Assembly (NCBI RefSeq): GCF_000413935.1
Contig: NZ_KE340381.1
Span: 199,209 to 263,208 of the forward strand
Origin: Acinetobacter colistiniresistens
GTDB taxonomy: Bacteria; Pseudomonadota; Gammaproteobacteria; Pseudomonadales; Moraxellaceae
DNA length: 64,000 nucleotides
Direction: 5' to 3'
Under the pieces are notes generated by a model. It saw nothing but the letters and a program-made list of their open reading frames with translations. It made no database searches and was not told where the DNA came from. The translations under genes and the position numbers were made by a program. The number at the start of each line of letters is the position of its first letter. Position 1 is the first letter of the stretch. Below are positions 57,786-59,794 of this stretch, piece by piece.

Positions 57786-59729
57786 CTAAAGTTCCCCAAT
57801 TAATTTAAGGTATTCCTGTTCAGTCAATACTTTAACGCCTTTATCACGAGCTGCAATAATCTTAGTTTCACCGACCTTGTCGCCAGTTACTAGATAGGTA
57901 GTTTTACCAGTAACCGATTTAGCCACGTTAGCCCCAAGTGCTTTCGCATGCTTTTCCATATCGCTACGGGAACCTTGTTGCATCGAACCAGTAAATACAA
58001 TAAGTGATCCAGCTATAGGAGAATCTGAACGCTCTCTATCAGACTCCTTGGACGTAATACTTAAATTGAAACCTAGGTTATATACTTTAAAAAACTCTTC
58101 TTTCACATTTGCTAGACCTTCAACAATAGCTTCTGCACTTAATTGTGCAAACCCATCTATTTTAACCAAGTCCTCGACCGATATTTCAAAAACTTCAGCA
58201 ATGGCATGATGCTGAAGTAATCTTTCACAGTTTCCGCCAGCTAATCGGGTAACTCCAAATGCAGCAAGAAACCTCCAATCCTCTATTTCAATCTGTCTAC
58301 TTGCTTGGAGTTGATCAATAAGATTCTGTGACGTTTTATCTCCAAATCCAAACTCTACAAATTGATGCTTAGGAATCTGATAGATTTCGTGGATATGCTT
58401 AATACCTTGATTGGTTATTTTTTCAATCACCTTTGGCCCAAAGCCATCTACATTACCCAATGTTTTAAAAAAATGAATCAGTGTATTTTCGGTTTGGGCT
58501 GGACAGTCTGACTTATTCGGGCATATCAAATGATCGCCTTCCCAAATAAGATGAGCACCACAACTAGGACAATTTTCAGGTAATTCTGGCTCTGCTGGTT
58601 TAATAACTTGTTCAATTTTTGGAATAACTAAGCCACTTCTGACTAGCTTAATGATTGCGCCAGGACCAACTCCATTTGTCTTCACCATATGATAGTGGTG
58701 AACAGTTACTCTGCTTAAAGTAGCCCCACTAAGTTTTGTCGGAACCAATTCAGCTACTGGTGAAACTCGACCAGTCCTTGAGGTCTGAGGAACAACTTTT
58801 AATACTTCAACTTCAGCCGATTCATCGTTCACTTTAAAAGCAATTTGCCACCTATGAAACTTTCTCGTAGAGCCCATATGCTCTTTGATCGGTGCATTTG
58901 TAGTTTCTAAGACTAATCCATCAATATCAAAATCAACTGAGTTCCACATACTTTCAAGAATACTCTCAAAGTTTGACAATAACTCTTCAATACTTCCCGT
59001 CCAGTTATCTAATAGTGAAAAAGGGTAGAAGACACAGACACCTTTATCAATTGCCTTTTGGACATCTTCATCAACTTTCTTTTCAGCGATAATTGCTGCT
59101 TGGATATTGCGTGAGTTTTCAAACTTTTCTATCAACACCCTATTAAAGTAACTTTTCTTGATTACGATTTCGCCAGGGCCTAAACCTCTTCCTGCATTTT
59201 TTGCTACTTTAAGTCCTCGTTCAAATGCACGAGTAATATCTTGACCTCTTGTCCCATCACCTCGGGTGTAGAGAGTTGTACCATCATCATAAGCAGCATA
59301 ACCATCAAGTTTTGGTGTAACCTTAATCTCAATCAAATTTTGATCAAATTCAATTTCTGAAGCGGCTTTAGTAATCCTTTCCGTCCATTTTTTAATTTCT
59401 TCCAAAGAATATGCTTTATCGGTAGAAAGCATTTTCTTTGGAAGTGGAACAGTCTTACTATCGATTAAAACTTCAGGCTCTACACTTAATAAGAATGGGT
59501 TCTCTGGATCAAGAGTTTTGAAGTAGTTAAGATATTCATCATACTGCTTATCTTCAATAATCGGATAACCGGATCTGTAAAGAGCATTAGCAACTTTAAG
59601 CAATATTTCCAACTCTTCCCAACTGTGATTATTTGAAAAAAAGAGTTTCTCTACATCGTCTATACTTAAATTAAGCTCGAGCTTTTCAATAATGGCGATT
59701 TGGTTGTCGTTAAATTTATAGTTAGACAT
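57786..59729 (-). CDS. ligA2: Element-borne full-length NAD-dependent DNA ligase (replacement LigA)
   Basis: A complete but divergent LigA of 647 residues. The Ia domain (IIEDKQYDEYLNYF) is followed by the adenylation domain with Lys140 in VTPKLDG, RGDGTRGQDIT, FDIDGLVLE and the AFKV segment. The OB fold comes next (TSRTGRVSPVAEL ... GLVIPK), then a Cys4 zinc finger (Cys387, 390, 403, 409), helix-hairpin-helix repeats and a BRCT domain (LIVFTGSMQQGSRSDM). All catalytic motifs are kept, so it should be active. It begins 11 bases after the stop of the truncated host ligA, and its Shine-Dalgarno AAGGG overlaps that stop. It probably supplies the cell's essential ligase. The symbol ligA2 is a descriptive label. 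Confidence 0.92.
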   Translation of the reverse strand: MSNYKFNDNQIAIIEKLELNLSIDDVEKLFFSNNHSWEELEILLKVANALYRSGYPIIEDKQYDEYLNYFKTLDPENPFLLSVEPEVLIDSKTVPLPKKMLSTDKAYSLEEIKKWTERITKAASEIEFDQNLIEIKVTPKLDGYAAYDDGTTLYTRGDGTRGQDITRAFERGLKVAKNAGRGLGPGEIVIKKSYFNRVLIEKFENSRNIQAAIIAEKKVDEDVQKAIDKGVCVFYPFSLLDNWTGSIEELLSNFESILESMWNSVDFDIDGLVLETTNAPIKEHMGSTRKFHRWQIAFKVNDESAEVEVLKVVPQTSRTGRVSPVAELVPTKLSGATLSRVTVHHYHMVKTNGVGPGAIIKLVRSGLVIPKIEQVIKPAEPELPENCPSCGAHLIWEGDHLICPNKSDCPAQTENTLIHFFKTLGNVDGFGPKVIEKITNQGIKHIHEIYQIPKHQFVEFGFGDKTSQNLIDQLQASRQIEIEDWRFLAAFGVTRLAGGNCERLLQHHAIAEVFEISVEDLVKIDGFAQLSAEAIVEGLANVKEEFFKVYNLGFNLSITSKESDRERSDSPIAGSLIVFTGSMQQGSRSDMEKHAKALGANVAKSVTGKTTYLVTGDKVGETKIIAARDKGVKVLTEQEYLKLIGEL

Positions 59730-59739
59730 TACTGCTACC

Positions 59740-59745
59740 CTTATA
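59740..59745 (-). promoter_or_regulatory. Shine-Dalgarno of the replacement ligase overlapping the ligA fragment stop
   Basis: On the minus strand the reading is GCAGTATAAGGGTAGCAGTA then ATG. The TAA stop of the truncated ligA shares its last two A with AAGGG, eight bases before the new start. Ribosomes ending on the fragment are placed to restart on the replacement ligase. Confidence 0.8.
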
Positions 59746-59794
59746 CTGCCATTTGAAAATCTAATTGAGTTCTACTTGAAATACTTGAGTTCAT

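What the first reader, a model, noticed from the sequence alone, without database searches (positions are those of the whole stretch)
59727..59760. Truncated ligA stop codon overlaps the ribosome site of the replacement ligase
The element adds 20 codons to the host fragment, then a TAA that shares bases with AAGGG, eight bases before the ATG of the new ligase. This gives promoter hijacking plus translational coupling, so replacement ligase output should track the host's own ligA transcription. It looks like a selected arrangement, not a chance junction.
Basis: partly seen in the sequence, partly recalled or inferred. Interest (0 to 1): 0.78.

Follow-up and report, generated by a model that had tools for sequence, protein, structure and literature searches.

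The report
Mobile island swaps in replacement ligase
A mobile DNA island cuts the essential DNA-ligase gene of an Acinetobacter in two and carries its own ligase, placed so that the cut host gene runs straight into the start signal of the new one; relatives show the same joint, and in some lineages the new ligase seems to have taken over the old gene's place.

Summary
A 16.4-kb island (about 43435-59803) splits host ligA, adds 20 codons to the N-terminal fragment, then a TAA sharing bases with AAGGG, 8 nt before the ATG of a divergent NAD+ ligase.

By itself the joint is ordinary: 7 of 19 other ORF pairs 5-20 nt apart in the Acinetobacter DNA scanned have a stop overlapping or abutting an SD core. 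What stands out is recurrence. In 10 of 10 loci with a long host fragment (Acinetobacter, Idiomarina, Pseudoalteromonas, Colwellia, others), at two ligA sites of equal codon phase, the host frame stays open and stops 11-14 nt before the ligase start. One further locus has lost most of the host fragment yet keeps an in-frame leader ending there; one more probably does, two possibly.

No promoter-like site was found on the coding strand ahead of the ligase. Transcription from the ligA promoter is likely; ribosome hand-over is plausible, unproven. Remnants in Alteromonadales suggest that the island's ligase displaces ligA in place. Verdict: partly supported; a new variant of tyrosine-recombinase islands.

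The parts
59804..60961 (-). host ligA N-terminal fragment, codons 1-386 (Ia, adenylation domain, most of the OB fold); the whole ORF runs to 59741
   Evidence: 97-98% identical to intact ligA in L043 and L044
59744..59803 (-). 20 island codons that extend the host frame ([20 protein letters not shown])
   Evidence: frame 0 is open over 19 codons in 10 of 10 tails, frames 1 and 2 in 1 and 0 of 10
59741..59743 (-). TAA stop of the truncated ligA frame
59738..59742 (-). AAGGG Shine-Dalgarno-like site sharing two bases with the stop
   Evidence: anti-SD duplex -5.1 kcal/mol
57786..59729 (-). replacement NAD+-dependent DNA ligase, 647 aa, about 25% identical to host LigA
   Evidence: adenylation, OB, HhH and BRCT domains over their cut-offs, zinc finger below, Ia domain not recognised; dN/dS 0.15-0.21 against the three other Acinetobacter copies that differ from it
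42553..43434 (-). host ligA C-terminal fragment (zinc finger, HhH, BRCT)
43435..59803 (.). the island; its ends share GGTGACAC in inverted orientation and are flanked by GATGTG / GATGTA
   Evidence: comparison with empty sites L043, L044, L046
43543..46161 (+). first gene of the recombination operon, 872 aa, no recognised domain
46173..48161 (+). large tyrosine recombinase, 662 aa; R-H-R-H-Y residues invariant in six sequences
   Evidence: weak matches only in 50 and 68; motif recalled
48073..48714 (+). small protein of the operon, 213 aa as listed (start uncertain)
48714..50069 (+). ordinary-size tyrosine recombinase, 451 aa, XerC/D-like
50739..57700 (-). cargo: type I restriction-modification genes hsdM, hsdS, hsdR with a PrrC-like gene at 53848-54978
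60981..60999 (-). hairpin plus U-tract in the ligA leader (possible attenuator)
   Evidence: by eye in 11 of 11 Acinetobacter leaders printed
61018..61023 (-). TATAAT, possible -10 of the host ligA promoter (no clear -35)
   Evidence: by eye: TATAAT in 9 and GATAAT in 2 of 11 Acinetobacter leaders; not called by the scan

Best explanation
The island integrates site-specifically inside the essential gene ligA and rescues the host with its own divergent ligase. SHOWN: the insertion joints; equal codon phase at two ligA sites; an open tail of 20-24 codons; a stop overlapping or abutting the SD; the island's ligase is the only undivided NAD+ ligase gene found in the genome. INFERRED: that ligA is essential and the island ligase active here; that the ligase is read from the host ligA transcript (possible promoter about 60 nt before ligA, then a conserved hairpin); and that ribosomes ending at the truncated ligA stop are delivered beside the ligase SD, so that rescue begins at once and follows host ligA expression. 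With time host fragments are lost and the ligase becomes the resident ligA after zipA.
For: The joint recurs in 10 of 10 loci with a long LigN; open-frame control: frame 0 10/10, others 1/10 and 0/10; two sites of equal codon phase, R(T/S/A)GDV and RTG(T/A)(L/M). A shrunken in-frame leader, clearly LigN-derived in L066 (81 bits, 0 of 300 shuffles) and probably in L009 (2 of 300), ends at the same kind of stop-SD. No promoter-like site on the coding strand in 59650-61150. In 175 genomes of the genus the ligase occurs in 5 and close relatives of the recombinase in the same 5. Other ligase matches in the genome are the host fragments; no ATP-type ligase. Mobility: the L005 ligase is identical over its whole length while the host LigN differs at dS 1.7. 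W and L006 share the ligase at 95% but the recombinase at 52%; W and L007 at 91% and 99%: recombinase modules and ligase have been reassorted.
Against: Stop-SD overlap is common (7 of 19). Tail substitutions are mostly nonsynonymous, and random placement of them would keep the frame open in 64-95% of cases. Host fragments show no decay in the window or in Colwellia, so an open frame may reflect recency. No structure common to the 10 start regions hides the SD. L054 keeps the end of the tail without a convincing leader; the L011 and L055 leaders are only weakly LigN-like (26 and 18 of 300 shuffles reach their scores). Shared descent of the tails reduces the independent cases. No expression data.
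Confidence: 0.62

Rival explanations
1. Plain co-transcription: the ligase has an ordinary SD and initiates on its own; the stop lies there because TAAGG is both a stop and a good SD, and compact spacing is the norm. Promoter hijacking is real, coupling is not.
For: 7 of 19 comparable junctions have the same overlap; a 10-50 nt gap is a class in which independent and coupled initiation can mix (passages of PMC6728339); resident copies such as L017 and L072 keep TAAGG-like sites with no ORF of 15 codons or more ending beside the start.
Against: The frame stays open to that very stop in 10 of 10 full junctions and in at least one shrunken leader; 3 of the 10 (L010, L020, L056) have a weak SD (-3.7 kcal/mol), which would profit from coupling.
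Confidence: 0.28
2. The open frame matters only to avoid Rho-dependent polarity: translation of LigN to near the ligase protects the transcript; where exactly it stops is unimportant.
For: Explains the open frames and the rescue; consistent with all 10 full junctions.
Against: Stops sit 11-14 nt from the start in 10 of 10 full junctions rather than anywhere in the tail, though shared descent weakens this.
Confidence: 0.2
3. The ligase has its own promoter at the island end (TATAAG at 59740-59745), giving a nearly leaderless mRNA; the tail is an accident.
For: TATAAG is one base from the -10 consensus.
Against: No acceptable -35 by eye; the scan finds nothing on this strand; the hexamer is not kept in L010, L012, L013, L020 or L056.
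Confidence: 0.06
4. The tail serves to remove the host fragment: its C-terminus (QMAV, QMAA, CLVA, QRAA) resembles non-polar C-terminal degrons and disposes of an idle NAD+-binding fragment.
For: In 12 of 15 loci that keep the tail end, the last two residues are A-A, A-V or V-A (five of the 12 share one tail end).
Against: L013 and L056 end in AH, L055 in VY; the tail peptide is not conserved; the degron resemblance is recalled, not tested.
Confidence: 0.08

Closest known systems
Strand-biased circularizing integrative elements (SE), PMC10214605
   Same: Four-gene recombination operon at one end with one large and one ordinary tyrosine recombinase; site-specific; short core at the ends (6 bp in SE); overlap of coding regions with SD sites inside the operon is reported there
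   Different: Gene order and make-up differ (window: large protein without recognised domain, large recombinase, small protein, ordinary recombinase; SE: intA, tfp, intB, srap); no carried copy of a split essential gene in the sections and passages read
GInt islands, PMC5385486
   Same: Integrase-rich operon plus cargo; 6-nt staggered cuts proposed; islands at fixed genes; an outward promoter that keeps a neighbouring gene expressed
   Different: By the passages read GInts sit at gene ends or between genes; operon order ginABCD differs; no full replacement of a split gene in what was read
Tn554 group
   Same: Large and ordinary tyrosine recombinase plus a small third protein (legend and text of PMC10214605)
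   Different: Gene order (recalled: tnpA, tnpB, tnpC) differs, and the window has an extra 872-aa gene
Tsy transposon (comM), PMC10293859
   Same: A tyrosine-recombinase element that splits a conserved gene at a conserved motif
   Different: Target comM; order YRec-HTH-TnsF-GIY-YIG; no GIY-YIG match in the window's operon; no replacement comM mentioned in what was read
Termination-reinitiation coupling, PMC6728339
   Same: Stop close to SD and start on one mRNA
   Different: The cases tested there overlap stop and start; here the gap is 11 nt and the pair was created by an insertion

Membership tests
NAD+-dependent DNA ligase (LigA) | Ia, adenylation, OB, zinc-finger, HhH and BRCT domains | tested here: inconclusive
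   Adenylation, OB, HhH and BRCT pass their cut-offs; zinc finger 20.6 against 25.8 bits; Ia (PF22745) not recognised. Aligns to 1dgs over 39-167 (weak) and 263-645 (strong)
NAD+-dependent DNA ligase (LigA) | NCBIfam equivalog cut-off TIGR00575 (444 bits) | tested here: not met
   316 bits: a divergent relative of LigA, not an equivalog by that cut-off
SE | operon intA-tfp-intB-srap at the left end | tested here: not met
   Order is large protein without recognised domain, large recombinase, small protein, ordinary recombinase last
SE | 6-bp footprint next to the ends | tested here: inconclusive
   GATGTA and GATGTG flank the ends; at the second site the exchanged stretch could be 6 or 7 bp
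[quoted passage not shown] strand bias | not testable with these tools
   needs PCR
SE | Sequence homology of Tfp/Srap | not tested
   no SE protein was obtained (record not held; the pAQU1 stretch was listed but not compared)
GInt | ginABCD order: catalytic recombinases first, ginD last | tested here: not met
   first gene has no recognised domain; last gene is a recombinase; sequence homology to Gin proteins not tested
Tsy | insertion in comM by a TnsF-type selector | tested here: not met
   target is ligA; no GIY-YIG match; TnsF homology not tested
Tn554 | tnpA-tnpB-tnpC order (recalled) | tested here: not met
   order here is extra gene, large recombinase, small protein, ordinary recombinase
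Translational coupling | Downstream synthesis falls when upstream translation is stopped early | not testable with these tools
   needs reporter fusions

The most novel reading that the evidence does not exclude
A class of mobile islands that break an essential replication gene and splice their own version into the host's transcript and reading frame in one step. Different recombinase modules, aimed at two sites of equal codon phase in ligA, carry the same rescue ligase and junction leader. Once in place, the island drives stepwise in-place displacement of the host gene: split gene, shrunken in-frame leader, then a resident ligase next to zipA.
Probability: 0.5. Interest if true: 0.78.

Novelty: new variant of a known kind. 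Interest (0 to 1): 0.66.

Why it matters
How an essential gene can be replaced in place by a distant homologue, without a lethal gap, is usually left open. Here likely intermediate stages exist side by side: a split gene with the island's ligase joined to its frame, a leader of 81 codons left from the host gene, decayed remnants, and clean replacement. That makes the question testable with a bicistronic reporter and a few natural loci. It also suggests an island that makes itself indispensable: losing it without exact repair of ligA should be lethal (inference).

Tried and rejected
Own promoter for the ligase: rejected as main source (and non-conservation). SD hidden by mRNA structure: no structure common to the 10 folds, although the SD is paired in some, e.g. 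L013. Relaxed selection on the N-terminal fragment as a sign that only its translation matters: not seen in the window (dN/dS 0.023-0.031 against L043, L044, L006) or in Colwellia (0.033-0.047 against an intact-pair median of 0.048, range 0.027-0.070); saturated at synonymous sites in Idiomarina. L005 is an exception: its LigN gives 0.09-0.16 against five others, which give 0.02-0.035 among themselves; its first 80 or so residues are nearly those of the window, so it may be a mosaic, and I draw nothing from it. Viral contigs: no relative of the ligase. Plasmid records: 27 with a ligase relative at 1e-60, all under 60% identity; 18 and 6 with distant relatives of two operon proteins. Filing the island as SE, GInt, Tn554 or Tsy: gene order or target not met. 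Profile comparison of the 872-aa protein with the large recombinase gave no signal, but the same test also failed between the two recombinases, so it has no power. The recombinase tree left three of five inner branches open, so I do not claim that recombinase type follows target site. Literature: no report of an island splitting ligA was seen in searches (listings only); the library lacks most subscription journals, so absence is weak evidence. A distant recombinase relative in G054 lies in a repeat-rich region and was not resolved. Rows dropped: of 49 loci, four (L027, L029, L062, L086: partial or start unclear) were left out, so counts there are of 45; six loci from genomes already present were skipped.

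Full report
WHAT IS THERE. The window lies in an Acinetobacter-like genome (G000:C8:199209-263208); its LigN is 98% identical to that of A. modestus L006 over 340 codons. On the minus strand smc-like, zipA-like and ligA genes follow each other (named from recall; ligA). ligA is split: codons 1-386 at 59804-60961 and the rest at 42553-43434. Intact ligA of congeners (L043, L044, L046) reads straight through, [11 protein letters not shown], so the island occupies about 43435-59803. Its two ends share GGTGACAC in inverted orientation and are flanked by GATGTG and GATGTA. Cargo is a type I restriction-modification set with a PrrC-like gene and a four-gene recombination operon (43543-50069) in which the 662-aa and 451-aa proteins keep an R-H-R-H-Y set of invariant residues (that this is the catalytic motif is recalled). 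The 647-aa protein at the other end is a divergent NAD+ ligase: adenylation, OB, HhH and BRCT domains pass their cut-offs, the zinc finger falls short and the Ia domain is not recognised.

THE JOINT. Read on the minus strand: host GTA, then 20 island codons, TAA at 59743-59741, AAGGG overlapping it by two bases, 8 nt, ATG at 59729. As a single joint it is unremarkable: among 49 distinct junctions of ORFs paired mechanically in eight pieces of window and related Acinetobacter DNA, 9 have a stop overlapping or abutting an SD core, all among the 21 with gaps of 5-20 nt; removing this junction and L007 leaves 7 of 19.

RELATIVES. The ligase was found in 16 loci of genome contigs, 5 of 175 genomes of the genus, 6 of 369 class members at 1e-130 including the window's own, 14 of 394 genomes of Idiomarina's order and 25 of 395 of Colwellia's family, with overlap between these lists. 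Of 45 loci whose start region was read: 10 (window, L005, L006, L007, L008, L010, L012, L013, L020, L056) have a long host N-fragment, and in 10 of 10 its frame runs through 20-24 island codons to a stop ending 11-14 nt before the ligase start; stop and SD read TAAGGG, TAGGTG, TAATAGG or TAATAGGAG. In these 10 tails frame 0 is open over the first 19 codons in 10, frame 1 in 1, frame 2 in 0. Four (L009, L011, L055, L066) have only a short leader of 44-81 codons ending 10-12 nt before the start at the same kind of stop-SD; L066 is clearly the first 56 or so codons of ligA fused in frame to a tail, L009 is probably ligA-derived, L011 and L055 are uncertain. L054 keeps the tail's end without a convincing leader. 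Eight have another gene's stop within -11 to +4 nt: seven zipA by the matches (L015, L019, L028, L079, L081, L082, L083) and another gene in L026. The remaining 22 show neither, though eight of them have an unidentified ORF of 15-54 codons ending within -13 to +14 nt.

TWO SITES, ONE PHASE. The window, L005, L007, L010, L020 and L056 are split at R(T/S/A)GDV; L006, L008, L012 and L013 at RTG(T/A)(L/M), about 46 codons earlier. At L036 and L038 the other side of the second site begins with the ligA remainder from about codon 340, confirming it. Both sites place the island end in the same codon phase, so one tail serves both. Recombinases differ: W against L036 52%, while the ligases are 95% identical; W against L007 is 99% and 91%. 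For L007 and L008 recombinase and ligase lie on different contigs, so their pairing is inferred. Within the genus the close relatives of the recombinase occur in exactly the five genomes that have the ligase, plus one distant relative in a sixth. In the 16 genomes a recombinase relative was found in 6; Idiomarina L010 has the full joint but none, so its island looks immobile.

MOBILITY AND SELECTION. The L005 ligase is identical to the window's over all its codons, while their host fragments differ at dS 1.7: recent transfer into the same site. The ligase is under purifying selection (dN/dS 0.06-0.21 where not saturated). The split host fragments show no relaxation in the window (0.02-0.03 against its nearest relatives) or Colwellia; L005 is higher (0.09-0.16) but may be a mosaic. 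So the open LigN frame in the 10 full junctions may reflect recent insertion; the argument for selection on the leader rests on the recurrence of phase, frame and stop-SD across unlike tails, and on the shrunken leaders. The tail itself changes mostly at nonsynonymous positions (9 of 10 changed codons W-L010, 6 of 6 W-L012), so what is kept is the frame and the stop, not a peptide.

DISPLACEMENT. Of 23 genomes examined for the ligase OB domain, 8 have two matches, all split loci (G000, G543-G546, G548, G558, G712); 15 have one. One of the 15, G550, is split (at the second site, with the island cut by a contig end); in the other 14 the single match is the island-type ligase. No ATP-type ligase was found in the window's genome. 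Host remnants stand between zipA and the ligase in L057, L069/L091 and L085/L090, and before the ligase in L066/L089, where no zipA match was found. By contrast 36 of 39 genomes in Colwellia's genus and 19 of 19 in Idiomarina's have a strong match to canonical LigN (the split ones are counted among them). The patchy distribution and the remnants favour in-place displacement over an ancient resident gene, though for loci with no remnant this is inference.

EXPRESSION. The promoter scan over 59650-61150 gave one site, on the other strand, against 3.5 expected in shuffles over both strands. It is not sensitive: it also missed TATAAT at 61018-61023, a hexamer seen by eye in 9 of 11 Acinetobacter ligA leaders (GATAAT in the other two). 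A hairpin with U-tract just before ligA is visible in 11 of 11 and looks like an attenuator. The island's ligase lies downstream of both on the same strand. That its output follows ligA expression is therefore likely but not shown.

LITERATURE. Read: PMC10214605 (abstract, section 3 part 1 of 2, section 12, passages), PMC5385486 (section 3 part 1 of 2, passages), PMC10293859 (section 13, passages), PMC6728339 (passages). The rest were seen in listings only. No island splitting ligA turned up.

VERDICT. The bigger finding is an island family that breaks ligA and installs its own ligase at a frame-matched joint, with what look like natural intermediates of gene displacement.

Noticed in passing
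60981-60999 and 61018-61023 (-): Host ligA leader: TATAAT (9 of 11) or GATAAT (2 of 11) followed by a GC hairpin and U-tract (11 of 11) shortly before the start codon in the Acinetobacter leaders printed; looks like an attenuator of an essential gene.
   Followed up: partly
54978-56144 (-), L005:13586-14848: hsdS differs strongly (36% identity) between two islands whose hsdM, PrrC-like and hsdR neighbours are 97-100% identical: swap of the specificity subunit.
   Followed up: no
53848-54978 (-): PrrC-like (anticodon nuclease family) gene inside the type I restriction set.
   Followed up: no
L093:4011-9934, L092:5998-10142: Distant relatives of the recombination operon on Pseudomonas plasmids; p1B17416 has genes of 698, 654, 169 and 384 aa in the same order.
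   Followed up: partly
L036 and L038, island end beside the ligA C-terminal fragment (near L036:3840-3865): At the second ligA site the stretch beside the recombinase-side end differs between two hosts and from ligA, as if carried in from an earlier site.
   Followed up: no
L125 (G054:C1:1972000-1991000): Distant recombinase relative in an Acinetobacter region with four copies of one 341-aa ORF, transposase-like by recall.
   Followed up: partly
L025, L026, L027, L029: Ligases of about 50% identity (three of the four in genomes of 1.4-1.6 Mb) without a zipA match upstream; in L026 another gene ends 11 nt before the ligase.
   Followed up: no
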